From Streptomyces antibioticus (GTDB taxonomy: Bacteria; Actinomycetota; Actinomycetes; Streptomycetales; Streptomycetaceae), in assembly GCF_001514065.1 (NCBI RefSeq), contig NZ_KQ948425.1, forward strand, positions 89,366 to 153,365: a DNA stretch of 64,000 bases, given 5' to 3'. The notes under the pieces were generated by a model. The model saw nothing but the letters and a program-made list of their open reading frames with translations. It was not told the origin of the DNA and made no database searches. This document shows, piece by piece, positions 12,266 to 63,231 of this stretch. The translations under genes and the position numbers were made by a program. Each line of letters opens with the position of its first letter. Position 1 is the first letter of the stretch.

Positions 12266-13163
12266 CGGGGGCGCCTTCCTTGACGTACTCGTCCATGAAG
12301 ATGGCTTCCAGGTCCGGCTTGTGGCAGAACAGCGCGTCCACGCGGTAGCGGGCCGCCTGCTTGATCAGGGCGTCGACACTGCCGTCGACAACGCAGTGCA
12401 GCGTGTTCCCCTCGACGCGGACACCGCCGACGTGGGCCAGTCCGGTGAACTCCTCGGTCCTGAAGGATTCACCGAAGCGGATCTCCACCTGGCTGACGGC
12501 CTGCCGCTGGAGCGACTCCACGGTGCCGACGGTCACCAGACGGCCGTCCTTGATGATGGCCACCCGGTCGGCGACCTCCTGGACCTCGCTGAGGATGTGC
12601 GAGGACATGAAGACCGTCTGCCCGGCGGCCTTGGCCTCGGTGACCAGGTTGAGGAAGACCTGCTGCATCAAGGGGTCGAGGCCGCTGGTGGGTTCGTCGA
12701 GCACGAGCAGTGCGGGTCGGTGCATGAAGGCCTGGACGATGCCGACCTTCTGCTTGTTGCCCTTGGACAGGTTCTTCACCTTGCGGGTGCGGTCCAGTTC
12801 CAGGCGTTCACTGAGCTCGCTCACCCAAGCGGGGTCCACGTGGCCCTGTAACCGGGCGAAGAACCCGAGCAGTTCGCCCACGTTCTCCGCGCCCTCCAGG
12901 ACGAGTTCGCCGGGCAGGTAGCCGATCTGCGCACGCAGTTCCGCGCCCTGCGCCACGGGGTCGAGGCCCAGGACGCGGATCGTGCCGGAGGTGGGGCGGA
13001 TCAGGTCCAGGATCATCTTCATGGTCGTCGTCTTCCCGGCCCCGTTGGGACCGAGGAAACCGAAGATCTCCCCGCGCCGGACGGCGAGATCGAGGTCTGC
13101 GACGCCGCGGCCCCCGGGATACCGCTTGGTGAGACCCGTCGTCTCGATCGCCGCTAAGGTCAC
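12255..13163 (-). CDS. ABC transporter ATP-binding protein (drug-export type)
   Basis: 302 aa from a GTG at 13163, preceded by GGAGGAGA five bases upstream; the GTGA also ends the regulator gene upstream, a 4-base overlap. Walker A is GPNGAGKTTT (K44), the signature is LSKGNKQKVGI, Walker B is LLVLDEPTSGLDPL and the switch His is in MSSHILSEVQ. A ~70-residue C-terminal part follows the nucleotide-binding domain, as in DrrA-like exporters. Codon 3 is TTA (bases 13155-13157), a rare leucine codon that in Streptomyces needs the bldA tRNA, so translation may be tied to development. The much longer open frame upstream (to 13964) is a shadow. Confidence 0.9.
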   Translation of the reverse strand: MTLAAIETTGLTKRYPGGRGVADLDLAVRRGEIFGFLGPNGAGKTTTMKMILDLIRPTSGTIRVLGLDPVAQGAELRAQIGYLPGELVLEGAENVGELLGFFARLQGHVDPAWVSELSERLELDRTRKVKNLSKGNKQKVGIVQAFMHRPALLVLDEPTSGLDPLMQQVFLNLVTEAKAAGQTVFMSSHILSEVQEVADRVAIIKDGRLVTVGTVESLQRQAVSQVEIRFGESFRTEEFTGLAHVGGVRVEGNTLHCVVDGSVDALIKQAARYRVDALFCHKPDLEAIFMDEYVKEGAPVVH

Positions 13164-13645
13164 TTCTCTCCTCCATCGTGAAGCCGCTGCTCGCGGTGGC
13201 GAGCGAGCAACGGCGGCAGTTCGCTCTGCATCCACCGGTACAGGTCGGCCACGTTCTCCAGGCGTGCCCGGCGCGCCGGGGACTCGTGCGCCAGGAGTTC
13301 GCTGCCCTTGTCCAGCACCTTCAGGATGTTGGTGACGGCGGCGAGGCGCTCGAAGACCGAGGCGACCCACCCCTCGTCGTTGATCCGGTAGTACGTACGC
13401 CGGTCTCCGGGGACGGACACCTTCTCCACCAGGCCCGCCTGCATCAGTTGCCGGGTCGATGTCGAGATCGATGCCTTGCTCGCGCCCAGGGTCTCCACCA
13501 GTTGCCCCGCCGTCTGCTCCGACGGTTCGCAGATCAGCAGCCACCCGATGACGCGGCCGGTGATCCTGGGAAGACCGGCGTCCTGCTCGAAGTACAGAGC
13601 CACGTCCTCGGCGAAGCGCAGGGCCTCGTCGTGTGTGATTGCCAT
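13160..13645 (-). CDS. GbsR/MarR-like winged-helix regulator of the ABC exporter
   Basis: 161 aa starting MAITHDEALRFAEDVALYFE. A winged-helix DNA-binding domain spans ~25-95 (RVIGWLLICEPSEQTAGQLV, LGASKASISTSTRQLMQAGL, VSVPGDRRTYYRINDE), followed by helical C-terminal dimerisation sequence. Its stop overlaps the GTG of the ABC ATPase, so it is the first gene of a regulator-ATPase-permease operon and probably senses the exported compound. It is related to two other proteins in this window (starts at 15039 and 61074), which share the xVIGxLxIxxPxxQ segment, but it has the best preserved recognition helix of the three. Confidence 0.8.
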   Translation of the reverse strand: MAITHDEALRFAEDVALYFEQDAGLPRITGRVIGWLLICEPSEQTAGQLVETLGASKASISTSTRQLMQAGLVEKVSVPGDRRTYYRINDEGWVASVFERLAAVTNILKVLDKGSELLAHESPARRARLENVADLYRWMQSELPPLLARHREQRLHDGGEK

Positions 13646-13719
13646 GTCGTTCAGCGTATTCCGAACGTACTGAACTGACAAGACAAACGGAACCTCCGCC
13701 ACCCGCACGAGTGAGCAGG

Positions 13720-14505
13720 TCAGGGCACCACGGTGCGCGCGAGATCCTGTGCCAGCAGACCCAGCAGGGCGGCCCGGTGCTCCTGGAGGAAGAAGTGCCC
13801 GCCCCGATAGGTGTGCTGGGTGAATCCGCCGGCGCCGTGGTGGCGCCAGCCGCGCATGTCCTCCTCGCGCGCCTCCTGGTCCTCGCTGCCCGACAGCGCG
13901 GTGATCGCACATCGCAGCGGCCGCTCGGCGCGGTAGCGGTAGGTCTCCAGCATGGCGATGTCACCGCGCAGCACCGGCAGGTAGAGGGCCCGCATCTCCG
14001 GGTCCTGGCGGATCTGCGGCGGCACCGCGCGGAAGCGGCGGTCCAGCGCGTCGAGGAACTCCTCGTCCGACAGCAGGTGGGACATCCGCTCCGACTGCGG
14101 GATCTCCGGGGTGCCGCGCGCCGACACGGTCAGGTGGGACACCTCCAGTCCGTGACGGCGACGGAGTTCCCGGGCCACCTCGAAGCCGATGAGCGCGCCG
14201 AGGCTGTGTCCGAACACCGCGAACGGACCGTCGAGACCGGGTGCCAGAGCGTCCGCGGCCTCGCGCGCCAGGCGGATCAGGTCGGTGCGGGGCTTCTCCC
14301 GCAGCCGCACCTCGCGGCCCGGCAGCCGTAGCAGCCACACGTCGATCCAGTCGGGCAGTCCGGCCGCCCAGCCGTGGAAGACCGTGGTGCCGCCACCCGC
14401 GTACGGCACACACAGCAGGCGCGCCGCGGCCCCGTCCCGGGGCTCCGGACGGAGCACCCACCTGGGATCGACCGCCGGGCGGGTGATCGGAGCCGGTGTC
14501 TGCAT
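13720..14505 (-). CDS. Type II thioesterase 1
   Basis: 261 aa alpha/beta hydrolase. LLCVPYAGGGTTVFHGWAAG and LRLPGREVRLREKP are hallmarks of free-standing thioesterases of PKS/NRPS pathways. The triad is visible: nucleophile S101 in GHSLG, D209 in SGSEDQE, and H237 in RGGHFF. Usual role: removal of stalled or wrongly primed acyl groups from carrier proteins. It follows the MarR-like gene and the adenylation-carrier gene on the same strand (51-base gap), so it may edit the aminoacyl carrier or transfer its load. There is no condensation domain in the locus to do that. Confidence 0.88.
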   Translation of the reverse strand: MQTPAPITRPAVDPRWVLRPEPRDGAAARLLCVPYAGGGTTVFHGWAAGLPDWIDVWLLRLPGREVRLREKPRTDLIRLAREAADALAPGLDGPFAVFGHSLGALIGFEVARELRRRHGLEVSHLTVSARGTPEIPQSERMSHLLSDEEFLDALDRRFRAVPPQIRQDPEMRALYLPVLRGDIAMLETYRYRAERPLRCAITALSGSEDQEAREEDMRGWRHHGAGGFTQHTYRGGHFFLQEHRAALLGLLAQDLARTVVP

Positions 14506-14556: not shown

Positions 14557-15039
14557 TCAGGAAACGGCGGCGGACTTCTCGTAGCGGTGCCAGAGCGCCG
14601 GCATCTCCTGGGCGAGGTAACCGAAGAGCTTCTCCATGTTCCGCAGCCGGGCCAGCCGCTCCGCGGAAGCCCCCTCGGCCTCGAGGGCCTTGAGGCCTTC
14701 GGCCATGGTCTCGTGGAAGTTCGGCCAGCTGAGGAAGGTGTGCTGGATGACCCGCGGCCAGGTGGCGTCCTGAAGCGTCAGGTAGTAGTCACCGTCCTCG
14801 GCCTCCTCACGGATGAGGAACTCCGCCGGGACGAGCTGGTCGGACATCTTGTCGACCGCGTCGCGGGGGATGTCGAGCTTGGCGCTGATCTCGCTGGCCA
14901 GCTGCCGTGCCGGTTCGGAGATCAGCAGATACCCGATGACCTCGCCGCGGTCGGCGGCCATGCCGTCCTTCTCGTAGTAGGCGCCGATCCGGGTGACGAT
15001 CTCACGCTCGGCGGCGGGAATGGCGTTCGCTGTGGTCAC
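14557..15039 (-). CDS. MarR/GbsR-like protein 2
   Basis: 160 aa. The segment EVIGYLLISEPARQLASEIS followed by KLDIPRDAVDKMSDQLVPAE aligns with the winged-helix part of the exporter regulator and of the protein starting at 61074. The position of the recognition helix is more acidic, and the wing (EEAEDGDYYLTLQD) lacks the basic residues seen in the exporter regulator (PGDRRTYY). The C-terminal half (WPRVIQHTFLSWPNFHET) is close to the 61074 protein. It lies between the adenylation-carrier gene and a type II thioesterase. It could be a regulator, a partner of its paralogues, or a ligand-binding protein that no longer binds DNA. Confidence 0.65.
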   Translation of the reverse strand: MTTANAIPAAEREIVTRIGAYYEKDGMAADRGEVIGYLLISEPARQLASEISAKLDIPRDAVDKMSDQLVPAEFLIREEAEDGDYYLTLQDATWPRVIQHTFLSWPNFHETMAEGLKALEAEGASAERLARLRNMEKLFGYLAQEMPALWHRYEKSAAVS

Positions 15040-15075: not shown

Positions 15076-16899
15076 TCAGCTCTCGGGCGCCACGGCGCCG
15101 ACCGCGCGCAGGTGCGCCGCGTAGCGCGTCGGCGTCGAGTGGTCCAGGAAGGCGGCCAGGCCGGTGGCCGCTCCCCAGCCCTCGCGGATGCGGCCGACGA
15201 TCTCCATGGCGGCCAGCGACTGTCCTCCGATCTCGCTGAACTCGTCGTGCGCGCCGATGCCCTGGCGGCCCAGCACGTCTTCCCAGACCCGGATGACCGC
15301 CGTCACCAGCGCGTCGTGCGCCGCGGGGGCTTCGGCGGCGGGTGCCGCGGGCTCTTCGGGGAAGGGCAGGGCCGAGCGGTCCGCCTTGCCGTTGGGCAGC
15401 AGCGGGATGCCGGAGAGGAAGAAGAACCGGCCGGGTATGGAGTGGGCGGGAACCGTCCGGGCCAGGTGCTCGCGGCACTGGGCGGCGGTGAGCAGCCGGC
15501 CGGGCTCCGGTACGACATAGCCGACCAGGAACCCCTCGCCGACGCGGTCGTGCCGGGCCGCGACGGCCGCCTCCCGGATGTCGGGGTGCTGTTCCAGGGC
15601 CGTCTCCAGCTCGCCCGTCTCCACCCGGACGCCGCGGATCTTCACCTGGCCGTCCAGCCGGCCGAAGAACTCGATGCCGCCGTCCGGCCGTACGGCCGCG
15701 AGGTCCCCGGTGCGGTACATGGTCGCGTCCGGCGCCTCGGCGAACGGGTCGGGCACGAAGCGCTCCTGGGTCAGCTCCGGGCGCCGCCAGTAGCCCTGGC
15801 CGACGCCCGCCCCGCCGATGTAGAGCTCGCCGCGCTCGCCCCGCGGGACCGGTCGGCCGTCCGTGCCGAGGACGTAGGCGGTGTGGCCCGGCAGGGTGTG
15901 GCCCCAGGGGATCGCGTCCCGTTCGGCGTCCTCCTTGCGCACCGGGTAGACGGTGCTGCAACACGACACCTCGGTCATGCCGGCCACGTTGAACGCGCGT
16001 ACCGACGGGCCCAGTTCACCCAGGGTGGCGGCCATCACCGGCGGGAAGCGGTCGCCGGCCAGCACCACCGTGCGCAGCGCCTCGGGCAGTGACCCGCTGC
16101 GTCGCCTGGCGGTGTCGGTGAGAGGGCGCAACAGGGCGGGCGCCGAGGACCATACGGTCACCGACTCGGCGCTCAGCAGATCAAGGAGCGCGCCGGGGTC
16201 GGTGCGCTCTGCCGCGAAGGGGACGACGACGGCGCCGCCGGCCGCGAAGGTCGCGAAGATCTCGATGACGGACAGGTCGAAGTTGAGCGACGACACCTGG
16301 AGCACCCGGTCGGTGTCCTCCAGGCCGATGGCGTCGGCGAGGCCCCGCATGGTCAGGGCGACTCCGGCATGCCGGTTCATGGCGCCCTTGGGGCGTCCGG
16401 TGGAGCCGGAGGTGTAGATGAGGTACGGAAGCCGGGAGGCGTCCACCTCGGGCAGCGGGGTCGGCTCACGCGGCTCGGCCGACCGGTCCGCGCGCAGTTC
16501 CTCCAGGCCCAGCAGGCCGGGCACCCAGGCGGACGCCTCGTCCACCAGGACCGTCCGGGCGCCGCTGTCGGCCAGGATGAACCGGATGCGTTCCTCGGGG
16601 TAGGCGGGGTCCACGGCCACGTAGGCCGCTCCGGCCCGCAGTACGGCGAGGACGGCGACCACCATGTGGTCGCTGGGCGCCATGGACACCCCGACCAGTT
16701 CGCCGGGGCCGAGGCCGCGGTCGAGGAGCACGCGGGCCAGGGCCGCACTGCGGTCGTCGAGTTCCCGGTAGGTGGTGGCGCGCCCGGCGTGCCGGACGGC
16801 GACGGCGTCCGGCCGCTGTCGGGCCTGGGCCAGCGCCAGTCCGTGCAGTGTCGACGGGCCGCTCGGGTCCGCGTCGACGTCACCGCTGAGAGCGCGCAT
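15076..16899 (-). CDS. Free-standing NRPS adenylation-carrier didomain (A-PCP)
   Basis: 607 aa from the ATG at 16899 (GGAGGAGGAA seven bases upstream). Adenylation domain ~15-500: LIYTSGSTGRPKGAMNRH (A3), NFDLSVIEIF (A4, pocket Asp D208), FNVAGMTEVSCCS (A5), YRTGDLA (A7) and LLPNGKADR (A10 lysine). Carrier domain ~525-600: EIGGQSLAAMEI with phosphopantetheine Ser S561. No condensation, epimerase or thioesterase domain is attached, and there is none elsewhere in the locus. By position the specificity residues read D-L-I-S-V-A-V-C-C-K, which I do not recognise. The FDLSV segment and the Ser in VTVWSSAP recall DltA, which activates D-alanine. If the product is boromycin-like, this protein would activate valine for ester formation on a hydroxyl. 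The pocket prediction is inference. Confidence 0.9.
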   Translation of the reverse strand: MRALSGDVDADPSGPSTLHGLALAQARQRPDAVAVRHAGRATTYRELDDRSAALARVLLDRGLGPGELVGVSMAPSDHMVVAVLAVLRAGAAYVAVDPAYPEERIRFILADSGARTVLVDEASAWVPGLLGLEELRADRSAEPREPTPLPEVDASRLPYLIYTSGSTGRPKGAMNRHAGVALTMRGLADAIGLEDTDRVLQVSSLNFDLSVIEIFATFAAGGAVVVPFAAERTDPGALLDLLSAESVTVWSSAPALLRPLTDTARRRSGSLPEALRTVVLAGDRFPPVMAATLGELGPSVRAFNVAGMTEVSCCSTVYPVRKEDAERDAIPWGHTLPGHTAYVLGTDGRPVPRGERGELYIGGAGVGQGYWRRPELTQERFVPDPFAEAPDATMYRTGDLAAVRPDGGIEFFGRLDGQVKIRGVRVETGELETALEQHPDIREAAVAARHDRVGEGFLVGYVVPEPGRLLTAAQCREHLARTVPAHSIPGRFFFLSGIPLLPNGKADRSALPFPEEPAAPAAEAPAAHDALVTAVIRVWEDVLGRQGIGAHDEFSEIGGQSLAAMEIVGRIREGWGAATGLAAFLDHSTPTRYAAHLRAVGAVAPES

Positions 16900-17115
16900 G
16901 AAGAAATTCCTCCTCCGGCCGCGAGAAAAGGGCCGCGCAGGGCTTCGTGAATCTCTGTCGTATCCCGACACTAGCCATGCCGTCGCGTCCGATCAATACC
17001 GCAGAATAAGTCTTGACGAAATTCCCGCACCCGCCCGCGCCGCGACGCCCGCAGTCCGAGACATTCTCGACGCTCTTGACCGACACCCACCAGAACTGCT
17101 CTATCATTTCGCTGC
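16900..17115. promoter_or_regulatory. Divergent promoter region between A-PCP and thioesterase 2
   Basis: 216 bases between two divergent starts, locally richer in A+T than the genes. Towards the plus-strand gene, TTGACC and TATCAT lie just before the start with suboptimal spacing (20 bases). If TATCAT is the -10 box the transcript would have almost no leader. The minus-strand gene has a strong ribosome site. Specific promoters are not established. Confidence 0.4.
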
Positions 17116-17871
17116 ATGACTTCCCTTCGGCTGGATCCCGACCGCTGGTTTCTCCGCGCCGGGCGCAGAAGCAATCCCCGGCTGACCGTCCTCGCCGTGC
17201 CCTGGGCCGGCAGCGGCACCGCCGCCTACCACGGCCTCGCGGATCAGCTGCCCGCCGACGTCGACCTGTGGATGCTGCGCCTGCCGGGCCGCGAAGTGCG
17301 CCGTCAGGAACCGCTCGCCACCACGATGAGCGAGCTCGCCGGCCCCGCTGCCGCCGCCTGCGCCGAGGCTCTGACCGGCGACTTCGTCCTCTTCGGGCAC
17401 AGTTCGGGCGCACTGATCGCCTTCGACGTCGCCCGTCGACTGCGCCGCGAGCACGGCCGGCTGCCCGCCCTGCTCGCCGTCAGCGCGCAGCCCGCACCCC
17501 ACCTCCCGCCGCGCTACGCGCCCATCCACGACCTGCCCGTGGAACGCTTCCTGAACGCGCTGGACGAGCGCTGCCACAGCGTTCCGCAAGCGCTGCGCAC
17601 CGATGCGGAAATGCAGGAGGTGTACGTTCCGGCCATGCGCGCCGACGTGGCCGTCGAGGAAACCTACGAATACCTTCCGGAAACTCCACTGGAATGCCCG
17701 GTGTCGGCCTTCGGCGGGGAATCCGACACGGAATGCAGAATTACCGACCTGGAGGCATGGCAGGTCCACACGTCGGGGAAATTCACCCTCAACGTGCTAC
17801 CGGGCGACCATTTCTTCTTCCAGACCTCCCGCGAATCGGTGGTGAAACTTATGGTCGAACAGGCCGGCTGA
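17116..17871 (+). CDS. Type II thioesterase 2
   Basis: 251 aa, the only biosynthetic enzyme on the plus strand. Family motifs: VLAVPWAGSGTAAYHGLADQ, MLRLPGREVRRQEP, GHSSGAL with nucleophile S96, D204 in GGESDTE, and H232 in LPGDHFFF. The ATG at 17116 is not preceded by a purine-rich ribosome site, so it may be translated from a leaderless transcript. It is transcribed away from the A-PCP gene and towards the end of the PKS operon, with a terminator between. Probable role: editing of carrier proteins. With a second type II thioesterase at 13720-14505, one may serve the PKS and the other the aminoacyl carrier. Confidence 0.87.
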   Translation: MTSLRLDPDRWFLRAGRRSNPRLTVLAVPWAGSGTAAYHGLADQLPADVDLWMLRLPGREVRRQEPLATTMSELAGPAAAACAEALTGDFVLFGHSSGALIAFDVARRLRREHGRLPALLAVSAQPAPHLPPRYAPIHDLPVERFLNALDERCHSVPQALRTDAEMQEVYVPAMRADVAVEETYEYLPETPLECPVSAFGGESDTECRITDLEAWQVHTSGKFTLNVLPGDHFFFQTSRESVVKLMVEQAG

Positions 17872-17931: not shown

Positions 17932-19011
17932 TCACTGGTCGTAGTAGCTGCCCAGCCGACGCGCCGGTGACGCCGGCTCGGTGCGCCCGGCGGTGGGCCC
18001 GCAGGCGCGCCGCAGGTCGTCCAGCCGCGGCAGGCCCGCCAGTACGTCGGCGAACGGCAGCCCGAAGTCGACCAGACAGGCGACCTCGTCCACCCCGACG
18101 CCGGCCAGCCGCTCGACCACCTCGGCGCACTTGCCCGGAGTACCCAGCAGGGAACGCCGGTCGTAGAAGTCCCGGGCCACCAGCGTGGCGAGCTGCTCCT
18201 GCTCCGCGTCCGACATGGCGGCGGCGCCGTCGTCGCTCCGCTTCTGGGTGAGGAAGGTGGACAGGTACCGGCGTACCGGATCCCTGACGACGTCCCACAC
18301 CCGGTCCTCGTCGTCGCCGAGGTAGGTGTGCATGCCCACGGTGACGGTGCCGGCCGCCGGGTCGAGTCCGGCGGCGGCCCGCTCCTTGCGGTAGGCGGCG
18401 ATGTTGTCCGCGAGCCGCTCCCAGCTGTCCAGCAGGGTCAGCACACCGAGGTCGCGGCGACCGGCCTCCAGCCAGGTGGCGGGGTTGGACGTGTGCACCA
18501 GCCACAGGGGAAGCTCCGCCTGGTGGGGCCGGGGGAAGGTGCGCACCGTCAGCGTGCCGTCCTCGGGCCCGGGGAAGGGCCGTTCCTCCCCCCGCCACAG
18601 CGCACGCAGGGTGTCGACGGTGTCGAGGGTGTACTCGCGCCGGTCGGCGAAGTGGCCGGGCTGGAAGACGAAGTCCCCGCGGTGCCAGCCGGTCGCCAGA
18701 CACAGCCCCACCCGGCCGGCCGAGAGCTGGTCGACCAGCGACCACTCCTCGACAATCCGCACCGGGTGGTGATGCGGTACGACCACGCTGCCGGCCCGCA
18801 GCTCGACGCGCTCGGTGACGGCGGCGATGGCCGCGGCCAGCACCGAGGGATTGGGGAAGCTGCCGCCGAACTCCTGGAAGTGCCGCTCGGGCACCCAGAT
18901 CGCCCGGAAGCCACGGGTGTCGATGAAGCGGGCCACGTCGAGGATGAACCGGTAGCGGTCACGCGGGGACTGGCGGTCGTCCGCGGCGAAGAAGTAGACG
19001 CTGAACTCCAT
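17932..19011 (-). CDS. FMN-dependent luciferase-like monooxygenase (MupA/Atu3671 type)
   Basis: 359 aa TIM-barrel oxygenase. MEFSVYFFAADDRQSPRDRY, RGFRAIWVPERHFQEFGGSF, NPSVLAAAIAAVTERVELRA, GLCLATGWHRGDFVFQPGHF, PLWLVHTSNPATWLEAGRRD and FYDRRSLLGTPGKCAEVVER follow the bacterial-luciferase family in the subgroup linked to PKS/NRPS systems. It starts 3 bases after the stop of the last PKS, so it is coupled to it. MupA-class members act on carrier-bound intermediates, and alpha-hydroxylation has been assigned to MupA in mupirocin biosynthesis. Here a hydroxyl at the carbon next to the carboxylate (C2) would fit, because that oxygen is a boron ligand in boromycin and aplasmomycin. A partner flavin reductase is not present in the window. 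Confidence 0.87.
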   Translation of the reverse strand: MEFSVYFFAADDRQSPRDRYRFILDVARFIDTRGFRAIWVPERHFQEFGGSFPNPSVLAAAIAAVTERVELRAGSVVVPHHHPVRIVEEWSLVDQLSAGRVGLCLATGWHRGDFVFQPGHFADRREYTLDTVDTLRALWRGEERPFPGPEDGTLTVRTFPRPHQAELPLWLVHTSNPATWLEAGRRDLGVLTLLDSWERLADNIAAYRKERAAAGLDPAAGTVTVGMHTYLGDDEDRVWDVVRDPVRRYLSTFLTQKRSDDGAAAMSDAEQEQLATLVARDFYDRRSLLGTPGKCAEVVERLAGVGVDEVACLVDFGLPFADVLAGLPRLDDLRRACGPTAGRTEPASPARRLGSYYDQ

Positions 19012-19014: not shown

Positions 19015-32981
<13,967 letters not shown>

Positions 32982-45092: not shown

Positions 45093-48000
45093 TCAGGTCA
45101 GCTCCTCGTGGAGTTCGAGCATGGGTCGGCGCACCGCACCGGCAGGCCGGGGACGGGGTTCGGGTTCGAGCGGGCCGGCGTAGGAGGGAACGTCGGCCGG
45201 GTCCGGGGTTCGGCTGGGCCGCGGGGGCACGGCAGCCGGGCCCGGACCGGTCTGGGACGGCACAGACGGCACCGGCGGGACGGAGCCCACGGGCAGACCG
45301 GGTTCCGGTTCCAGCGCGAGCAGTGTGCGGGCCGCCGGACGCGACGCCGGCGGCGCCGGCCGGTCGAGCCAGTGCCGGGTTCGGCGGTACGGGGCGGGCG
45401 GGAGGGGTGTGCGGCGGGGGTGATACCGCTCCCGCTCCTCGGGGAGCAGTTCGCGCAGCAGCACATGGGCGTTGGTGCCACCGAACCCGAAGGCGCTCAG
45501 CCCCGCCCGTCGCACACCGCACTCCGGTGTCCAGGGCTGCGCGGTGAGGGCCGGCCGGAACGGGGAGGTGTCGAAGGCGAAGCGCGGGTTGGGCCGCTCG
45601 CAGTGCAGGGTGGGCGCGATGGTGCCGTGGACGAGCGAGAGGATCACCTTGTGCAGCCCGGCCATCCCGGCGGCCATCAGCAGATGGCCCAGGTTGGACT
45701 TCACGCTGCCGACCGCGCAGTGGCCGACCGCGTCCGTCGTGCGCCGGAAGGCGCGGGTGAGCGCTTGAAGTTCCATCGGGTCGCCGATCATGGTGCCGGT
45801 GCCGTGCGCCTCGACGTACGTCACCGTCTGCGCGCCGACTCCGGCCGCGGCCAGGGTGTCGGCGACCAGTTCCTCCTGGGCCTGGGGGTTCGGCGTGGTC
45901 AGCCCCATGGTGCGGCCGTCGTTGTTGGTCAGGCAGGCCTCGATCACCGCGTGGACGCGGTCGCCGTCGGCGAGCGCCCGGTCGAGCGGTTTGAGCAGCA
46001 CCGCCCCGACTCCCTCGCCCAGCACGATGCCGTTGGCGGCGGCGTCGAAGACGTGGCAGGCACCGTCCGGGGACAGCGCGCCGGATGCACTCAGCTTGAG
46101 GAAGGGTGTCTCGTCCAGCAGCAGATCGCCGCCGCCGACCAGCGCCGCCTCGCAGTCACCGGCGGCCAGTGCGCGCAGGGCGAGCTGAAGCGCGGTCAGC
46201 GACGAGGAGCAGGCGCTGTCCACGGTGACGTGCGGGCCCCGCAGGTCGTAGACGTGGGCGGCGTGGGCGGCGATGAAGTTCTGGTTCAGGCCGGTGACGG
46301 TGTTGCGGTGCGGGACGGCCACCCGACTGCCGTAGGTGCTGGTGCCGGATCCCATGAAGAAGGAGATCCGCCGCCCGGCGACCTCCGCGCGGGAGTAGCC
46401 GGCGTCGCGCAGCGTCTGCTCGACCGTCTCCAGCGACAGCCGCACCAGCGGGTCCACGTGGCTCGCATCGGCGGGGTCGATGCCGAAGAACTCCGGGTCG
46501 AACTCCTCGATTCCGTCCAGGAACCCGCCCCACTTGCTGATGCTGCGGCCCGGCGCGGGCTGCGGGGCCCACAGCCGCCGGTGGTCCCAGCGGGAGGCGG
46601 GCACCTCGGTGATGCCGCTGCGGCCGTCCCGCAGCAGCTGCCAGAAGTGCTCCAGGTCGGGCGCGCCGGGGTAGCGGCCCGCGGCACCGATGACGGCGAT
46701 CAGGCCGGAACGTGTCTCGCGGGCGGGCCCGGTGGCGGAGATCGCCCCGCCCGTCTGGGCGGCCACGGTCGCCCGCGGCCGCTCGGCCCCCGACTCCTCG
46801 CGCATCCAGCGGGCCGTGCCCGTGGGGTGTGCGGCGCACAGGTGGGCGGCAAGTTGGGCGCAGGTGGGGTACTCCAGCACCAGCGAGGGTGACAGCGACT
46901 CCCCGACGCGCTCTTCGAGTTGGGCCACGATGGCGGCCACCAGGATGGAGTCGACGCCGAGTCGGGTGAAGTGCGTGTCAGGGCCGATCCGCTCGGCCGG
47001 CATCAGCAGGGCGCGGGCCAGCAGTCGGGCGACGGCCTCGGCGACGGCCGGCCGCAAGGCACCGTCGGGGTCCGGCTCGGGCATGGGCGCTTCCTCAGGT
47101 CCGGGGTCGGGGTCGGGTACTGGCCATACGGCGGGGTCGACGGCGGCCGCCACGCAGTGCGAGCGGCCCGATGCCAGGGCGGCCTCCAGGAGGTCCAGGC
47201 CCTGTTCGACGGTGTGCGGGGCGAAGCCGTGCTCCGCGTACCGGGGGCCGCGCACCTCGCCCATGCCGGCGCCAGCCCAGCTTCCCCAGGCCACGGAGAG
47301 GATCCGGCCCGAGCCGGAGTGCTGGGCGGCCACGGCGTCCAGTACGGCGTTGCCGGCGGCGTAGTCGGTGAGCCCGACGGCCAGTTCCGGCAGGGCGGCC
47401 GACAGCGAGGAGTACAGGACGATCCACTCCGGTGCGTCCTCGCGCAGCTCGGTCAGCAGCGTCAGCGTCCCCTCCCCCTTGGGCTGCCAGACGGCCCGTA
47501 CGGAGTCCGGGTCCTTATGGACGAACGCAGGCGTCGCGCGGTCGACGGCCCCGGCGCAGTGCAACACTCCCCCGACGGGCCCGAGTTCCTCGCGGACTCG
47601 GTCGAGGAAGGCCCGCAGACCCACCGCGTCCGTCAACTCACCTGAGTGCAGCAGGAGTTGTACGCCCATCCGCTCCAGCTCCAGCAGTCCGGCGGCGCGT
47701 GGGTCGGAACTGCCCGCACTCCAGGCGGAGCGCGGCGGCAGCGGGCGCAGGCCAAGCAGGGCCAGCCGCCGCGCGCCGCGTTCGGCCAGTCGCCGCGCGG
47801 CGGCCATGCCGAGCCCGCCGGTGCCCCCGGTGATCAGATAGCTCCGCGACGCATCGACGCGCACCGGCGCCGACGCTGCCCGCGCCACCCGGACCAGGCG
47901 GGGCGCCAGCCGCCGGCCGCCGCTCAGCCGTACCTCGGGCTCGCCTGCGGCCAGGGCCAGTTCGGCCGCCACCAGGCCCAGCAGGGCCTCACCGTCGTCC

Positions 48001-57497: not shown

Positions 57498-58354
57498 CTC
57501 TCCGCGCCGACCGGCGCCGTTTCACGGATCTTCTCGATCAGCCCGGTGAGCACCTGGCCGGGGCCGACCTCGCGCAGGTGCGGGGCCGGCAGCCCCAGCA
57601 GGTAGCGCACCGAGTCGGTCCACCGCACCGGCGAGGTGAGCTGCCGCTTCAACTCGCCGGCCAGTCGGTCGTCGGTGTGCGGCCGGGCCGTGGTGTTGGC
57701 GACGACCGGAATGCGCAGCGGGGCGAGGCGGTGGCGGTCCAGGACCCGGCCGAACTCCTCGGCGGCCGCTGCCATGTGGCGGGAGTGGAACGCCCCGCTG
57801 ACCCGGAGCGGGATCACGGCTTCGGCGTGGGTGCCGAGCGTGCGGCTCGCGTCCCGGACCGCGTCCTCGGCGCCGGAGACGACGATCTGGGTGGGGGCGT
57901 TGAGATTGGCGATGTCGACCTCCGGGTGCGCGGCGAGCACGTCGCGCACCTGCTCCACGGACAGCCCGATCACGGCCGCCATCGCGCCAGGACCGGCCTT
58001 GGCCATGGCCTCGGCACGGTGCCGCACCACCTCCAGGCCGGTCAGGAAGTCGTAGGCGCCGGCCGCGAACAGGGCGACGAACTCGCCCAGGCTGTGCCCG
58101 GCCACGACATCGGGCACCTCGCCGCTCTCCCGCACGAGATCCAGGTAGCCCAGCGCGCCGACGACGTAGAGCGAGCACTGCGTGTAGCGGGTGTCGGCCA
58201 GTTTGTCCGCCGGTGCGTCCAGGCAGAGTTCCTCGATCGAGTAGCCGAGCAGCGCGTCCGCGCGCCGTACCAGGTGGGGGTAGCGAGGGAAGAGCTCGCG
58301 TCCCATGCCCTGCCGGTGGGCGCCTTGGCCGGGGAAGAGGTGGACAAGGGTCAT
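57494..58354 (-). CDS. Free-standing (trans-acting) malonyl-CoA acyltransferase
   Basis: 286 aa, a single FabD-like AT. LFPGQGAHRQGMGRELF starts the fold, S88 in VAGHSLGEFVALFAAGA is the nucleophile, and VSGAFHSRHM carries the catalytic His in the malonyl-type signature. None of the ten modules encoded downstream has its own AT, so this enzyme must load malonyl units onto all extender carriers. A GGAGGGA ribosome site lies about 6 bases before the ATG. Its stop overlaps the start of PKS A (ATGA), keeping its output coupled to the PKS. Confidence 0.95.
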   Translation of the reverse strand: MTLVHLFPGQGAHRQGMGRELFPRYPHLVRRADALLGYSIEELCLDAPADKLADTRYTQCSLYVVGALGYLDLVRESGEVPDVVAGHSLGEFVALFAAGAYDFLTGLEVVRHRAEAMAKAGPGAMAAVIGLSVEQVRDVLAAHPEVDIANLNAPTQIVVSGAEDAVRDASRTLGTHAEAVIPLRVSGAFHSRHMAAAAEEFGRVLDRHRLAPLRIPVVANTTARPHTDDRLAGELKRQLTSPVRWTDSVRYLLGLPAPHLREVGPGQVLTGLIEKIRETAPVGAER

Positions 58355-58429: not shown

Positions 58430-60559
58430 TCAGGTGCGGACCAGAGCGGCCAGCCGGGTCCGCAGCACTCGGGCGGCCTCGGTCATCAGCAGGTCGGCGA
58501 GGGTGTCGGGATGGCGGGCGCGCCAGTTCTCCAGCTCGGTGCCTGCCAGATAGCCGTTGAGGGCGCCCATGGCGGGTCCGCAGGCCACCTGGTAGTCGAC
58601 CCGCCGGTCGCTGCTGCCGGACATGGCGAGCCGGGTGGACTGCACGAAGTACCACTTGAAGACGAGCGCCATACGGTGCTTGGGGTCCGCGTCCGCGCGT
58701 GCGAGTTCGGCCGGGTCGCGCGTGGCGTAGTAGGCGGCCGTCTCCTGCCAGATCTCCTCGAAGCGCCGCCTGAAGATACGTTCTTGCAGCTGGCGGCGGG
58801 TGGGCGCGTCGATGGCGTCGAGGGAGTCGTAGCGCCGGTAGAGGTCGTAGAGCTTGTTGGCGCGGGCGGGGAAGAAGAGCCCCTTGCCGAGCACCTGGGC
58901 GCGGGCGCCGATCTCCAGCATGTCGCCCGCCGGAACCATCATGGTGTCCTGGACGCCGGCCGACTGGAGCAGGTCCTTGACGTCGTCGGCGGTGCCGGCC
59001 TCGGGCGTGCACTGGTTGATGCTGCCGGTCAGCACGAAGTCGGCGCCCAGCAGAAAGGCCGCCGCGATCGCTTCGGGAGTGCCGAGGCCGCCCGCCGCGC
59101 CGACGCACACGGAATGCCCGACGCCCGCGGCCGTGTCGCGCAGTCGGACGATCTCCGGGAGCACGGTGATCAACTGCCGCTGGTCGGTGTGCCCGCCGGA
59201 ATCCGCCTCGACGCACAGATCGTCCGCCATCGGCAGGTACGGCGCCAGCGCGGCCTCCTCAGCACACAGCGCGCCGCTGTCCAGGAGGGCCGCCACCAGA
59301 TGGGCCGGGGCGGGTGCGAGGAAGGCCCGGGCGGACTCCGGCCGCGAGACCTTGCCAAGCACGCTGTTCGGCACGGCCACGGTGCCGTCGTCGCGCCGAC
59401 GCACACCCGAGAGCCGGTAGCGGACCAGGGCCGCACTGGGCTGGAGGAAAGCGGCGGCCTCCACGCGCCGGACGCCGCGGGCGAGGAAGAGGTCGACCGT
59501 CTGCTCCTCCCGGCGCGGATGGTCCGGATGGGCCAGCAGGTTCATGCCGAACGGCCCGTCCGCACCGACGTCGGCACGGATGCGGGCGATGGCCTCGTCG
59601 ATCTGTTCGGGGCGCAGCCCGCCGGTGCCGAAGTAGCCCAGCAGCCCCGACCGGCCCATTCTCGCGACCAGCGCGGCGGAGGCGATCCCCTTGTACATCG
59701 AGCCGCTGACGTAGGCGAGGCGTACACCGTGACGACGGCGGAACGCGGCGCTGCCGAGCGCCTCGCCATCGGCCTGCCGTACGCCGGCGGGTGCGAACCC
59801 GTCCAGGGTGGTCATCTCGCGCGAACTCCTCGGATAGGTGCGGCCACGGGGACGCGGCCCGCGTACACAGAGCGCGGCGCGCAGCCCCACGGGGGCGTCA
59901 AGGCGGTGGCAGGTCCACAGTTCGGGCTCAGGGACGGAGGCGGTCGGGCGCAGCACCGGACGCCCGTCCCGCCAGGTGAAGTCCACGTCCCCGAACGGCA
60001 GACGCAGTCCGAGACCCATGGCCTTGGCGAGGGCTTCCTTCAGCGTCCACAGCTGGACGAAGGCGGGATGGCGGTCCGGGCCCGGCAGAGCTGACAGCGT
60101 TGTCTGCTCGGCGGGCGTCAGGCAGCTGCGCAGCGGGGAGGGATCGTCGTCCGCGAGCCGTTCGACATCCACTCCGACCGGCCTGCCCGTGGAGATCGCG
60201 ACGAGTGCAACACCCGCCGAGTGCGAAAGGCTGAACTCCCGGCTGTCGCCGAGGTGTTCGGCGATGCGAGGCTTGCCGTACCGGTCCTCGGTGAAGTCCC
60301 AGTCCTCGGGCGGCACGGACGTCCCCTCGGACAGCGCGTGCCGCAACAGCCAGTGGGCGCGGATGTACTCGTCCCGGTCGGCGGACCGCAGGAAGCCTTC
60401 GGCGCGCTGTCGCTCCTCGGGGGCTAGCACCCGCAGGCGGTCCTGGCGGATGTCGTCCCCATCGCCCGGTTCGGGCCGGGCGAGGCGCAGGACGATGTCC
60501 GGTTCGGGTGAGACCGGCTGGTGGATCGGCCGACCGCGGGCGTCACTGCCCGCGATCAC
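58430..60559 (-). CDS. Fusion of Sfp-type phosphopantetheinyl transferase and PfaD-like trans-enoylreductase
   Basis: 709 aa in one uninterrupted frame. Residues ~20-240 are an Sfp-type PPTase: FSLSHSAGVALVAIS, VGVDVERL (Mg-binding D131, E133) and WTLKEALAKAMG (W171, K174, E175). From ~249 (MTTLDGFAPAGV) to the end is an FMN-dependent PfaD-type enoylreductase: RHGVRLAYVSGSMYKGIASA, GLLGYFGTGGLRPEQIDEAI, VGAAGGLGTPEAIAAAFLLG and the C-terminal helices. The first half would activate all carrier proteins of the locus; the second would reduce enoyl intermediates in trans, since no module has an ER domain. M249 could be an internal start giving a separate ER. Gene order is conserved with the regulator upstream (4-base overlap) and the AT downstream (75-base gap). 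Confidence 0.9.
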   Translation of the reverse strand: MIAGSDARGRPIHQPVSPEPDIVLRLARPEPGDGDDIRQDRLRVLAPEERQRAEGFLRSADRDEYIRAHWLLRHALSEGTSVPPEDWDFTEDRYGKPRIAEHLGDSREFSLSHSAGVALVAISTGRPVGVDVERLADDDPSPLRSCLTPAEQTTLSALPGPDRHPAFVQLWTLKEALAKAMGLGLRLPFGDVDFTWRDGRPVLRPTASVPEPELWTCHRLDAPVGLRAALCVRGPRPRGRTYPRSSREMTTLDGFAPAGVRQADGEALGSAAFRRRHGVRLAYVSGSMYKGIASAALVARMGRSGLLGYFGTGGLRPEQIDEAIARIRADVGADGPFGMNLLAHPDHPRREEQTVDLFLARGVRRVEAAAFLQPSAALVRYRLSGVRRRDDGTVAVPNSVLGKVSRPESARAFLAPAPAHLVAALLDSGALCAEEAALAPYLPMADDLCVEADSGGHTDQRQLITVLPEIVRLRDTAAGVGHSVCVGAAGGLGTPEAIAAAFLLGADFVLTGSINQCTPEAGTADDVKDLLQSAGVQDTMMVPAGDMLEIGARAQVLGKGLFFPARANKLYDLYRRYDSLDAIDAPTRRQLQERIFRRRFEEIWQETAAYYATRDPAELARADADPKHRMALVFKWYFVQSTRLAMSGSSDRRVDYQVACGPAMGALNGYLAGTELENWRARHPDTLADLLMTEAARVLRTRLAALVRT

Positions 60560-61074
60560 CCGCCCAGAGAGGCGGTCTTCTCGCGCTCCGCGTAGGTCGT
60601 CACCACGTTGGGGATCTCCCGGGCGATGAAGCCGAAGAGATGCTGGGTGCGGTCGAGCCGCTGCCGGCGCTCGGGGTCCTCGTCCTTGAGCGTCTCCTGC
60701 GCGTCGCGCAGGATGCGGTCGAACTCGGGGATGTTGGCGAAGACTTCGAGAACGGCGTTGGGCCAGGACTCGTCGTTCATGTGCAGGGCGTACTCGTCGG
60801 TGCCCGGGATGTCCCTGCGCAGGACCACTCGGGCCGGGACGAGCTGGTCGGCGACGCGGTCGATGGCCGCGCGCGTGGTGCCGAGCCGATCGATGAGTTC
60901 CGCGGTGGTCTGCTCCACCGGGTCACTGATCATGAGCCAGCCGATGACGTGGCCCCGTTCGTGCGGCATGCCGTCGTTGCGCCAGTAGTAGTCGGCGACT
61001 CCCTCGACGATGATGCGCTCGGCCGCGGTAAGACCGGCCAGTGCGTCGCCGGCTTCGTTCGCATCGGTTCCCAT
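60556..61074 (-). CDS. MarR/GbsR-like protein 3, first gene of the PKS operon
   Basis: 172 aa from the ATG at 61074; a frame to 61185 exists but adds unrelated residues, while GGGGGAT lies seven bases before 61074. HVIGWLMISDPVEQTTAELI, LGTTRAAIDRVADQLVPARV and RRDIPGTDEYALHMNDESWP follow the winged-helix part of the exporter regulator, and the C-terminal half resembles the protein starting at 15039. It overlaps the PPTase-enoylreductase gene by 4 bases and heads the ~43 kb operon. It may repress its own operon or work as a sensor together with its two paralogues. Confidence 0.7.
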   Translation of the reverse strand: MGTDANEAGDALAGLTAAERIIVEGVADYYWRNDGMPHERGHVIGWLMISDPVEQTTAELIDRLGTTRAAIDRVADQLVPARVVLRRDIPGTDEYALHMNDESWPNAVLEVFANIPEFDRILRDAQETLKDEDPERRQRLDRTQHLFGFIAREIPNVVTTYAEREKTASLGG

Positions 61075-61305
61075 AGGTATCCCCCATCCCTTCGGGCGGT
61101 GGCCCGGGTCGGCCCGCACTGGTTTCCAGTGGGTGCGCCACATCATGTCCGACCGGTCTGGAACGAACCTGACAGAAATCTGCAATGGCTGATCACATGC
61201 GCTTCACTCCCTGCGGAGGCGAAGGCCTCCTACCGAGACACTCGGCCACGTGTTCTCATGAGCGCGGTGACCCAGTCCCCCCCCACGACAGACGAAGGAA
61301 CGGCT
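61075..61305. promoter_or_regulatory. Divergent control region of the PKS operon and the SARP gene, with a 6-bp palindrome
   Basis: All transcription of the PKS operon (leftward) and the activator (rightward) should start here. CACTGG-TTT-CCAGTG (61117-61131) is a perfect palindrome, a candidate operator for one of the MarR-like proteins. Closer to the activator are GGAGGC-GAAG-GCCTCC (61215-61230) and CCGAG-ACA-CTCGG (61233-61245), which could fold in the leader RNA. I could not identify a pair of SARP-type heptamer repeats with confidence. Confidence 0.5.
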
Positions 61306-63231
61306 GTGTCCGCTGACTTAAGCTTTCGCCTGCTAGGAGCCATAACCGCACGCCAGGGGGTCCGTCACATCAGACTCGGCCCCGCGAAACAGCAGTGCGT
61401 GCTGGCCGCCCTCCTGATAGACGCCAACCGCGTCATCCCGGTCGACGCGCTCCTCGACCGGGTCTGGCACGACGCGCCACCGGCCACCGGCCGCGCGGTC
61501 CTCTACAGTTACGTGGCACGGATCCGCCGATTACTGCCCCGCATCCCGGCGGAGCCCGAAGCCCCCGCCATCGTCCACTCCGCGGGCGGCTACATGGCCC
61601 AAGTCTGCCCGTCCCATGTCGACCTGCACCACTTCCGCGGACTCGTCGCCTCCGCCCGCGCGGTCGCCGCGTCCGAACCGGCGCTCGCCGCCGAGCGCTA
61701 CCGCGCCGCGCTGGGTCTGTGGCAGGGCGAGCCCCTGCTCGGACTCACGGGCCCCTGGGTGGAGACGGTGCGCGAGGCCCTCACCAACGAGCGGACCTCC
61801 GCCCTGACGGAGTGCCACGCGTCCGAGCTACGGGCCGGACGGCACCTCACACTCCTGCCGGAACTGGAAGCCATCGCCACCGAACGCCCCTACGACGAGG
61901 CCTCCTTGCGCCATCTGATGACGGCCCTGCACCGATGCGGCCGCGGCGCCGAGGCCGTCGCCCGCTACCACCACACCCGCCGGCTCCTCGCCGACGAACT
62001 CGGCCTCGATCCCAGCCCCGCCACGCAGGATCTGTACCAGGAACTGCTCCGGGCGACCGCCATGGCGGGCACCGCCCCGGAACCCTCCGGACCGCTCACC
62101 GAAGCCGGCCCAGGGATCCCGGCGGCCGCTCGCCCGGCCCAACTACCCCTGACCTGCCCCACGTTCACCGGCCGTTCCAAGGAACTACGCCTGCTTGATG
62201 AATTATTGACGAGCAGATCCAGCCAGAGACGAACGCTGGTCCTGGAAGGGCTGGCGGGCGTCGGCAAGTCCACGCTCGCCCTGCACTGGTCGCACCGTAC
62301 CCGAGCGGAGTTCCCGGACGGCGAGTTGTACGTCGACCTGCATGGCAGCGGCCCCCAGCCGCCGCTCGACCCCGCGACCGCGCTCGCCCGCTGTCTGCGC
62401 CAGCTCGGCATCTCCGTCACCCCGCACCCGGGCGACTGGGACGAACTGTCGGCGCTGTGGCGGTCGGTCGTGGCCCAGCGGCGCCTGCTCCTGCTGCTCG
62501 ATGACGCCGCCGACGCCGAGCAGGTGGAACCCCTGCTGCCCGGCGGACAGGGGTGCGCCACCTTGATCACCAGCCGCAGACGCCTGGACCGCCTCGTGGT
62601 CCACCACCACGCCCAACGTCTGACGGTGCCCGCCCTCACCACACCGGAGTCCACCGAACTGCTGCGGCTGCTCCTCGGCCCGTCCCGGACCCAAGCCGAA
62701 CCGGAGGCCGCCGCCCGGCTGACCGAGGCCTGCGCAGGACTGCCGTTCGCCCTTCAGGTACTCGCCGCCCGACTCCAACTGCGCCCAGAAGCCCCCCTGG
62801 CCACCACGGCCCGGCAACTCGACGCGTGTTCACCGCTGAACGTGCTGCGCACCGACTCCTCCGACACCATCTCGGTACGGGCCCTGCTCGACTCGTCCTT
62901 CGTGTCCCTGCCCACCGAGGCGCAGCGGCTCCTCCCGAGTCTGGGCTCCGTCCCCTCCCCCTCGTTCCGCGCGGAACACTTCGCCGCGCACGCCCGCTGC
63001 ACACCGGCGGAGGCGGAACGGGTCCTGGGCGCCCTCGTCCGGGAGCATCTGCTGTCCGAGGACGGACCACAGGGGTACGTCGTGCACCACCTGGTCCGCT
63101 GCTACGCCGCGGAACACGCCGCCCGGCCGACCCGTCCCTCGCCGCCACAGAGCACAGTCCCTTCCCCGCCGCCGGATGCCCATCGGCCGGCGATCCGCGC
63201 GAACGCGTGCGCGACACCGCTGGCACCTTGA
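61306..63231 (+). CDS. SARP-type pathway activator with BTAD and NB-ARC domains
   Basis: 641 aa from a GTG at 61306 with AAGGA six bases upstream. An in-frame ATG at 61258 is possible but has no ribosome site. Winged-helix domain 1-~95 (FRLLGAITARQGVRHIRLGP; GRAVLYSYVARIRRLLP), BTAD ~100-245 (VDLHHFRGLVASARAVAASE; RCGRGAEAVARYHHTRRLLA), then an NB-ARC ATPase with P-loop GLAGVGKSTLAL (~315-326) and LLLLLDDAAD. No TPR tail follows. Codons 5, 76 and 300 are TTA (61318, 61531, 62203), so translation should need the bldA leucyl-tRNA. This is a common way for Streptomyces to link antibiotic production to development. Family role: binding direct repeats upstream of biosynthetic operons and recruiting RNA polymerase. 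It is divergent from the PKS operon, its likely target. Confidence 0.92.
   Translation: MSADLSFRLLGAITARQGVRHIRLGPAKQQCVLAALLIDANRVIPVDALLDRVWHDAPPATGRAVLYSYVARIRRLLPRIPAEPEAPAIVHSAGGYMAQVCPSHVDLHHFRGLVASARAVAASEPALAAERYRAALGLWQGEPLLGLTGPWVETVREALTNERTSALTECHASELRAGRHLTLLPELEAIATERPYDEASLRHLMTALHRCGRGAEAVARYHHTRRLLADELGLDPSPATQDLYQELLRATAMAGTAPEPSGPLTEAGPGIPAAARPAQLPLTCPTFTGRSKELRLLDELLTSRSSQRRTLVLEGLAGVGKSTLALHWSHRTRAEFPDGELYVDLHGSGPQPPLDPATALARCLRQLGISVTPHPGDWDELSALWRSVVAQRRLLLLLDDAADAEQVEPLLPGGQGCATLITSRRRLDRLVVHHHAQRLTVPALTTPESTELLRLLLGPSRTQAEPEAAARLTEACAGLPFALQVLAARLQLRPEAPLATTARQLDACSPLNVLRTDSSDTISVRALLDSSFVSLPTEAQRLLPSLGSVPSPSFRAEHFAAHARCTPAEAERVLGALVREHLLSEDGPQGYVVHHLVRCYAAEHAARPTRPSPPQSTVPSPPPDAHRPAIRANACATPLAP

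What the first reader, a model, noticed from the sequence alone, without database searches (positions are those of the whole stretch)
13160..63231. Trans-AT PKS locus whose module logic matches a boron-binding macrodiolide (boromycin/aplasmomycin type)
Seen: FkbH-type loading module, ten KS domains of which two lack catalytic His, C-MT domains in the KS6 and KS8 modules, no KR in the last module, tandem TE, a luciferase-like oxygenase and a lone A-PCP. If KS3, KS5 and KS9 do not elongate, a C3 starter plus seven extensions gives C17. Counting back from the TE, the KS8 MT acts on C4, the KS6 MT on C8, and C3 stays a ketone. Known: boromycin and aplasmomycin halves are C17 chains with C4 methyl, C8 gem-dimethyl, a C3 hemiketal and a C2 oxygen that binds boron; boromycin also carries D-valine. 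Two C20 halves plus valine is C45, as in boromycin. I know of no other family that fits all these points.
Basis: partly seen in the sequence, partly recalled or inferred. Interest (0 to 1): 0.92.

Follow-up and report, generated by a model that had tools for sequence, protein, structure and literature searches.

The report
Likely boromycin-type antibiotic gene cluster
This stretch of an actinobacterial (probably Streptomyces) genome holds the assembly-line genes for what is most likely a boron-binding antibiotic of the boromycin type, one of a small family of related clusters found here in other Streptomyces.

Summary
A ~52 kb trans-AT polyketide cluster (10.7-63.2 kb) has a MaoC-SDR-FkbH loader, ten KS (KS5, KS9 lack catalytic His), C-methylation only in the KS6 and KS8 modules, no KR in the last module, tandem TE, a MupA-type oxygenase and an A-PCP. 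I add a trans-AT, a PPTase-enoylreductase fusion, an ABC exporter and regulators. All nine shared KS pair one-to-one between window and S. anulatus; KS5-ACP is missing in some lineages. KS3 groups with KS5 and follows an A-type KR, which supports a non-elongating KS3 and hence C17. Starter, seven extensions, methyls at C4 and C8, C3 ketone and alpha-hydroxylase fit half of boromycin/aplasmomycin (structures recalled). The A-PCP is found only in the window's clade, which favours boromycin. Against: KS3 keeps its catalytic residues; no KR for C9; C11-C13 incomplete; no epimerase; unusual A-domain code; no KS-clade test; no chemistry. No such gene cluster was found in the open library; subscription journals are not covered.

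The parts
10678..11391 (-). YczE-like membrane protein, probable left edge of the conserved block
   Evidence: NCBIfam YczE 81.7 bits, below its cut-off of 205; 92% identical in S3, 53-70% in G220, G345, An, G118, G272, not found in the G148 stretch
11474..13964 (-). ABC exporter: permease 11474-12265 and ATPase ORF 12255-13964 (true start probably near 13.2 kb, inferred); 13160-13912 is an overlapping ORF with a MarR-like region
   Evidence: Pfam (permease, MarR); the ATPase ORF was named from its match to an annotated ABC ATPase of S. anulatus; 90% identity in S3
13720..14505 (-). type II thioesterase (TEII_a), GHSLG
   Evidence: Pfam; sequence
14557..15039 (-). small probable regulator, related to 60556-61185
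   Evidence: No Pfam or NCBIfam family; 36.9% to the S3 copy of 60556-61185; the name GbsR-like is recalled
15076..16971 (-). stand-alone A-PCP; hand-read pocket code D-L-I-S-V-A-V-C-C-K
   Evidence: Pfam; the nine variable code positions are unchanged in S3 and SID3212
17116..17871 (+). second type II thioesterase (TEII_b), candidate aminoacyl transferase partner of the A-PCP
   Evidence: Pfam; 96% in S3, 87% in SID3212; role inferred
17932..19011 (-). MupA/Atu3671-family FMN luciferase-like monooxygenase, candidate C2 hydroxylase
   Evidence: TIGR04020 403 bits, cut-off 244.45; best PDB match PuwE 6ket
19015..32985 (-). pksC: KR7-ACP; KS8-DH-KR-cMT-ACP; KS9(no His1)-ACP; KS10-ACP-TE1(no Ser)-TE2
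32982..45089 (-). pksB: DH3-ACP; KS4-KR-ACP; KS5(no His1, His2)-ACP; KS6-cMT-ACP; KS7
45093..57497 (-). pksA: loading MaoC-SDR-FkbH-ACP; KS1-KR-ACP; KS2-KR(A-type)-ACP; KS3
54318..55937 (-). FkbH domain (glyceryl loading) in pksA
   Evidence: TIGR01686 283.6 bits, cut-off 146.65
55968..57497 (-). MaoC dehydratase and SDR reductase of the loading module
   Evidence: Pfam
38793..40064 (-). KS5, no catalytic His; missing in the S. anulatus-type lines
45450..46700 (-). KS3, end of pksA; with DH3 at the start of pksB it looks like a split dehydrating bimodule
   Evidence: PMC8456789 passages
35328..36143 (-). cMT of the KS6 module (acts on C8, inferred)
   Evidence: Pfam; motif EAGAGTG
25969..26775 (-). 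cMT of the KS8 module (acts on C4, inferred)
   Evidence: Pfam; nearest PDB chain DisA protein 6cca
19036..20739 (-). TE1 (GHAAG, no Ser) and TE2 (GCSFG)
   Evidence: Pfam two stretches; alignment
57494..58354 (-). discrete malonyl acyltransferase (trans-AT)
   Evidence: TIGR00128 290.1 bits, cut-off 260.9
58430..60559 (-). PPTase fused to PfaD-type enoylreductase (trans-ER)
   Evidence: TIGR02814 618.3 bits, cut-off 449.25; Pfam ACPS
60556..61185 (-). small probable regulator, related to 14557-15039
   Evidence: No Pfam family
60508..63231 (+). SARP-type activator (BTAD, NB-ARC); real start probably near 61.2-61.4 kb
   Evidence: Pfam; split alignment to S3

Best explanation
A trans-AT PKS that makes the C17 half of a boron-binding macrodiolide, most likely boromycin or a close valinylated relative. 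FkbH loads a glyceryl unit from 1,3-bisphosphoglycerate; MaoC and SDR convert it to lactyl (C15-C17). KS1, KS2, KS4, KS6, KS7, KS8 and KS10 add seven malonyl units; KS3, KS5 and KS9 only pass the chain on. KR1 sets 15-OH; KR2 with KS3//DH3 makes a Z alkene; KR4 and the KS5-ACP step handle C11; cMT6 dimethylates C8; KR7 sets 7-OH; KR8, DH8 and trans-ER saturate C5 while cMT8 methylates C4; C3 stays a ketone that closes on 7-O. The luciferase-like enzyme hydroxylates C2. TE2 joins two chains head to tail and closes the ring; the 2,3-oxygens of both halves bind borate. The A-PCP, perhaps with TEII_b, adds valine to the C16 hydroxyl. Shown here: domains, active-site residues, gene order, conservation. 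Inferred: every chemical step.
For: Domain content and order. Two KS lack His. KS3 groups with KS5 at 98/95. KR2 lacks the B-type Asp in W, S3, G220, G345, An and G272, while the other aligned KRs keep it, as expected of dehydrating bimodules that make Z alkenes (PMC8456789, passages). The two cMTs sit at C4 and C8, 1 of 21 possible pairs among seven extensions (arithmetic). Oxygenase family is MupA-like and trans-ER is present. The same line with KS5-ACP in S3, and without KS5-ACP in S. anulatus, G118 and G272. A-PCP present in W, S3 (93%) and SID3212 (79-80%); in G220, G345, G118, G272 and G148 no match above 43% identity (E up to 1e-60). That boromycin hydrolysis gives D-valine and boric acid: PMC13029266, passages. 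Carbon skeletons of boromycin and aplasmomycin are recalled.
Against: No KR in the KS6 module, yet boromycin and aplasmomycin have a C9 alcohol (recalled); some other KR must act or the product is a 9-ketone. No DH is placed for C11. KS3 keeps a full Cys-His-His triad, so elongation (C19) is not excluded by residues; in G220 and G345 even KS5 keeps its first His (EAHGSAS). The A-domain code is not a textbook valine code (recalled), and no epimerase or dedicated acyltransferase is evident for a D-valine ester. G220 and G345 have KS5-ACP but no A-PCP, so KS5 does not track valine. No KS-clade test, no product.
Confidence: 0.6

Rival explanations
1. The product has the boromycin/aplasmomycin skeleton and binds boron but is not boromycin: for example a 9-keto analogue or a different aminoacyl ester.
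For: No KR in the KS6 module in any line read; unusual A-domain pocket; four lineages of the line exist, with at least two different tailoring sets, so unreported analogues are expected.
Against: The A-PCP is kept in three clusters with an unchanged pocket, and boromycin is the known member with an amino acid (PMC13029266, passages).
Confidence: 0.22
2. The window makes aplasmomycin (tetrahydrofuran, no valine; recalled), and DH3 forms the ring.
For: Same skeleton logic; DH-like domains can form oxygen rings (PMC4979870, passages).
Against: Carries the A-PCP. DH3 keeps the HxxxGxxxxP Gly in W, S3 and SID3212, which is Asp or Ser in the lines where no A-PCP was found. Of those, S. anulatus, G118 and G272 are better aplasmomycin candidates, though their DH3 also keeps the catalytic Asp that classical pyran synthases lose.
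Confidence: 0.06
3. KS3 elongates, giving a C19 chain and a different, possibly tartrolon-like or non-boron macrodiolide or macrolide.
For: KS3 has intact Cys, HGTGT and GH motifs; type B split bimodules have two elongating KS (PMC8456789, passages).
Against: The layout is KS//DH-ACP-KS, as in type A, not DH-ACP-KR; KS3 carries GHLLMA where the window's seven presumed elongating KS have GHxE, and it groups with KS5; no KR would serve that extension.
Confidence: 0.12

Closest known systems
Boromycin (Streptomyces antibioticus) biosynthesis
   Same: Predicted C17 half-chain with C3 starter, C4 and C8 methylation, C3 ketone, C2 oxidation, dimerising TE, amino-acid activation (boromycin structure recalled)
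   Different: No boromycin gene cluster was found in the library searched, so no sequence comparison; C9 alcohol and C11-C13 pattern not explained by the modules
Aplasmomycin (Streptomyces griseus) biosynthesis
   Same: Same half-chain skeleton (recalled)
   Different: Has a tetrahydrofuran and no valine (recalled); the window has an A-PCP and a DH3 with the standard Gly. The S. anulatus plasmid line (NZ_CP109126.1) is the better candidate
Tartrolon trans-AT PKS (Teredinibacter, Gynuella)
   Same: Boron macrodiolide made by a trans-AT PKS
   Different: At least 13 KS (KS10, KS11 and KS13 are named in PMC11260071, passages) against ten here; sequence not available to compare
Streptomyces sp. 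S3(2020) cluster, NZ_JABERD010000008.1
   Same: Same genes, same order, 85-98% identity
   Different: Product unknown to me
Bryostatin-type FkbH/lactyl loading (recalled)
   Same: FkbH plus reductive domains before the first KS
   Different: Recalled only; here the dehydratase is a MaoC-type domain

Membership tests
trans-AT polyketide synthase | No AT domain in the modules and a discrete AT | tested here: met
trans-AT polyketide synthase | Non-elongating KS, split modules, trans-ER | tested here: met
type A dehydrating bimodule | Order KS-KR(A-type)-ACP-KS//DH-ACP split between two proteins | tested here: met
   definition from PMC8456789, passages
type A dehydrating bimodule | Second KS lacks a catalytic His | tested here: not met
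   KS3 keeps HGTGT and GH; it has GHLLMA and groups with KS5. It may work like a type A bimodule but is not filed as one
boromycin/aplasmomycin macrodiolide | Three-carbon, glycerate-derived starter | tested here: met
   FkbH loader at gene level; that the real starter is such is recalled
boromycin/aplasmomycin macrodiolide | C17 half-chain | tested here: inconclusive
   Seven extensions if KS3 does not elongate
boromycin/aplasmomycin macrodiolide | Methyl at C4, gem-dimethyl at C8, ketone at C3 | tested here: met
   Gene level: cMT only in the KS8 and KS6 modules, no KR after KS10; double methylation itself not testable
boromycin/aplasmomycin macrodiolide | C9 alcohol | tested here: inconclusive
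   The gene-level sign, a KR in the KS6 module, is absent; whether another KR acts there cannot be told
boromycin/aplasmomycin macrodiolide | Alkene and C11-C13 pattern | tested here: inconclusive
   The bimodule predicts a Z alkene; fate of C11 not assigned
boromycin/aplasmomycin macrodiolide | C2 oxygen | tested here: inconclusive
   MupA-family oxygenase follows pksC in W, S3, G345, S. anulatus, G118, G272 and G148; G220's contig ends before it; site of action inferred
boromycin | D-valine ester | tested here: inconclusive
   A-PCP present and conserved in the clade; specificity and epimerisation not shown
boron macrodiolide | Boron in the product | not testable with these tools
   Needs mass spectrometry
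boron macrodiolide | KS clades fit predicted substrates | not tested

The most novel reading that the evidence does not exclude
The locus is the boromycin gene cluster and one of at least four lineages of an undescribed Streptomyces family of boron-macrodiolide assembly lines that diverge by gain or loss of one silent KS-ACP module, by the DH3 active-site Gly and by swapped tailoring genes, with a dimerising TE2 served by a catalytically dead TE1.
Probability: 0.45. Interest if true: 0.75.

Novelty: new member of a known kind. Interest (0 to 1): 0.66.

Why it matters
Boromycin is described as the first known antibiotic that contains boron (PMC12339860, passages) and is a potent ionophore, yet the searches of the open library turned up no actinomycete gene cluster for this class (subscription journals not covered). 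A sequence-level candidate, with sister clusters that differ at defined points, makes the route to boron-binding macrodiolides, their dimerisation and the valine ester directly testable by deletion, expression and mass spectrometry.

Tried and rejected
Rejected: KS5-ACP as the marker of boromycin against aplasmomycin. G220 and G345 have KS5-ACP but no A-PCP match above 43% identity in their genomes (E up to 1e-60; G345 is only 86% complete). Rejected: DH3 of the S. anulatus type as a classical pyran synthase; it loses the HxxxG Gly but keeps the Asp, whereas pyran synthases change the Asp (PMC4979870, passages). Undecided: whether KS5-ACP was gained or lost; the AT+ER tree does not resolve it. 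Led nowhere: PDB comparison of the A domain for specificity, of KS3 and of DH3; nine searches for a published boromycin, aplasmomycin or tartrolon-type cluster or a plasmid link; the Ensifer plasmid line H4, whose loader resembles this one but whose modules differ; further plasmid searches, in which S. anulatus was again the best record and no other record held most of the PKS (in one search even S. anulatus covers 64% of the query). In the automatic motif table some KS, KR, DH and ACP motifs are misread or blank (regex artefacts); KS motifs for W and S. anulatus were taken from the alignment, KR motifs. The DH of the KS8 module was not detected in G220 and G345, though the gap there is long enough to hold one; not followed up. 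G148 has broken frames and Ns and was counted only where stated; its KR numbering is shifted because one KR was not detected in its frames.
Full report
The window lies in a 10.1 Mb genome (G000:C4:89366-153365), by its close relatives a Streptomyces (inferred). Three large minus-strand genes, pksA, pksB and pksC, are read in that order: 45093-57497, 32982-45089 and 19015-32985. Pfam finds 3 + 4 + 3 KS, 2 + 1 + 2 KR, 3 + 4 + 4 ACP stretches, one DH and one C-methyltransferase each in pksB and pksC, two TE in pksC and no AT in any of them. A discrete FabD-type AT, a PPTase-PfaD fusion, a MupA-family luciferase-like oxygenase, two type II TEs, an A-PCP, an ABC exporter and regulators flank them.

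Architecture: loading MaoC-SDR-FkbH-ACP; KS1-KR-ACP; KS2-KR-ACP; KS3 // DH-ACP; KS4-KR-ACP; KS5-ACP; KS6-cMT-ACP; KS7 // KR-ACP; KS8-DH-KR-cMT-ACP; KS9-ACP; KS10-ACP-TE-TE. KS5 lacks both His and KS9 lacks the first; the other eight keep Cys-His-His.

Relatives. A genome-contig scan with the loading module gave 9 loci, two of them close: Streptomyces sp. S3(2020), 86%, and SID3212, 71% over the 648 residues that its contig holds. In S3 every cluster gene from 10678 to 63231 is present in the same order, while the window's genes outside this block have no match in the 80 kb read there. A plasmid search (127 records matched, 3 covering at least 80% of the loader) led to S. anulatus plasmid NZ_CP109126.1, 43% over 96%. 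A family search for FkbH over 392 genomes of the genus (185 of 392 with a match; the match table was cut, so I re-read 33 handles, including G000-G002) gave five more with the loader fused to a long PKS: G118, G272, G220, G345 and G148. Of these G118 is practically the S. anulatus cluster (100% for the genes compared that lie within its stretch). So at least 5 of 392 sampled genomes, besides the window's, carry it; weaker FkbH matches were not re-read for frame length.

Two layouts: with KS5-ACP in W, S3, G220, G345; without it in S. anulatus, G118, G272 and, as far as its broken frames show, G148. In G220 and G345 KS5 keeps its first His. In a tree of 10 window and 9 S. anulatus KS, all nine shared positions pair with support of at least 98/96, and KS5 falls with the KS3 pair at 98/95; each of these nine window KS has its best S. 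anulatus match at the same position, 57-68% identity. The assembly lines are thus orthologous apart from one silent module.

Chain logic. FkbH with dehydratase and reductase domains suggests a lactyl starter (inference; bryostatin precedent recalled). KS3 has an intact triad, so its status is not read from residues. It ends pksA, DH starts pksB, the KR before it lacks the B-type Asp in all six lines where it was aligned as KR2 (W, S3, G220, G345, An, G272), and it groups with KS5. This is the order of the type A split dehydrating bimodule KS-KR-ACP-KS0//DH-ACP described in PMC8456789 (passages), which gives Z alkenes; there the second KS is non-elongating and has Asn in place of a His, here it does not, so I say that it works like one. 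If KS3, KS5 and KS9 do not elongate, seven extensions on C3 give C17. Counting from the TE: C3 ketone (no KR10), cMT8 on C4, KR8-DH8 plus trans-ER at C5, KR7 at C7, cMT6 on C8, no KR at C9, KR4 at C11, KR2/DH3 at C12-C13, KR1 at C15. With C2 hydroxylation by the MupA-family enzyme this is the boromycin/aplasmomycin half, whose structures I recall and could not verify in the library beyond D-valine and boric acid on hydrolysis of boromycin (PMC13029266, passages). Two cMTs at exactly these positions are 1 of 21 possible placements among seven modules.

Misfits. The KS6 module has no KR in the window or in the seven relatives in which it was read (S3, G220, G345, S. anulatus, G118, G272, G148), though both antibiotics have a C9 alcohol (recalled). 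No DH is assigned for C11. TE1 lacks the nucleophilic Ser in W, S3, S. anulatus/G118, G272 and G345, keeps it in G148, and was not seen in G220, whose contig ends; TE2 keeps GCSFG or GSSFG in W, S3, S. anulatus/G118, G272 and G345, and cannot be read in G148. The A-PCP has no epimerase.

Boromycin or aplasmomycin? The A-PCP is in W, S3 (93%) and SID3212 (79-80%). In G220, G345, G118, G272 and G148 no match exceeds 43% identity (matches at E up to 1e-60, G345 86% complete); in the S. anulatus stretch the best is 37% at a separate adenylation gene about 20 kb away. The three A-PCP clusters also keep the Gly of HxxxGxxxxP in DH3, where G220, G345, S. anulatus/G118 and G148 have Asp and G272 Ser. 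The three are close relatives, so this is one event, not three. S. anulatus, G118 and G272 instead carry a P450 and a methyltransferase, not seen in W, S3 or G148; the downstream ends of G220 and G345 are cut. I therefore favour boromycin for the window and leave aplasmomycin or another tetrahydrofuran member open for the S. anulatus type. The pocket code, read by hand from an alignment to LgrA, is D-L-I-S-V-A-V-C-C-K; it shares D, S, A and K with one valine code I recall, which is weak.

Literature. Nine of ten searches (the tenth was on bimodules) bore on this and listed no paper that by its title or start of abstract reports a boromycin or aplasmomycin gene cluster: boromycin with 'biosynthetic gene cluster' 4 papers, with 'trans-AT' 0, aplasmomycin with 'gene cluster' 7. 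I read passages of two of the 4 and of one of the 7, and only listings of the rest. Subscription journals are not held, so a published cluster cannot be excluded.

Verdict: a real, complete, conserved trans-AT PKS cluster; boron-macrodiolide skeleton likely (0.88, the sum of the three readings that share it), boromycin or a close valinylated relative the best single guess (0.6).

Noticed in passing
19036-20739 (TE1-TE2): The first TE has lost its nucleophilic Ser (GHAAG) while TE2 keeps it; the loss is shared by S3, S. anulatus/G118, G272 and G345 but not G148, suggesting a non-catalytic role of TE1 in dimerisation.
   Followed up: partly
NZ_CP109126.1 (L016/L017): A sister cluster without KS5-ACP and A-PCP, with P450 and methyltransferase, lies on a 391 kb linear plasmid of Streptomyces anulatus NBC 01759; aplasmomycin candidate.
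   Followed up: partly
5192-6844 and 63176-63859: ISL3-type and Mutator-type transposase genes lie on either side of the cluster, which suggests mobility.
   Followed up: no
13160-13912, 14557-15039, 60556-61185: Three small related probable regulators in one cluster, 28-37% alike (window proteins against S3's copies), with homologues in the sister clusters.
   Followed up: no
10678-11391: YczE-like membrane protein of unknown role, kept in six of the seven sister clusters read (not in the G148 stretch; SID3212's fragments do not cover it).
   Followed up: no
58430-60559: PPTase fused to the trans-enoylreductase; S. anulatus has the enoylreductase without it, G148 matches the whole fusion.
   Followed up: no
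Ensifer canadensis plasmid pT173a (L018): A loader resembling MaoC-SDR-FkbH-ACP heads a large PKS/NRPS locus on a conjugative plasmid; different modules.
   Followed up: partly
table: 32 of 392 genomes have an FkbH domain in an open frame of 4.5-5.1 thousand residues with much higher FkbH scores (over 386 bits), apparently another PKS family.
   Followed up: no
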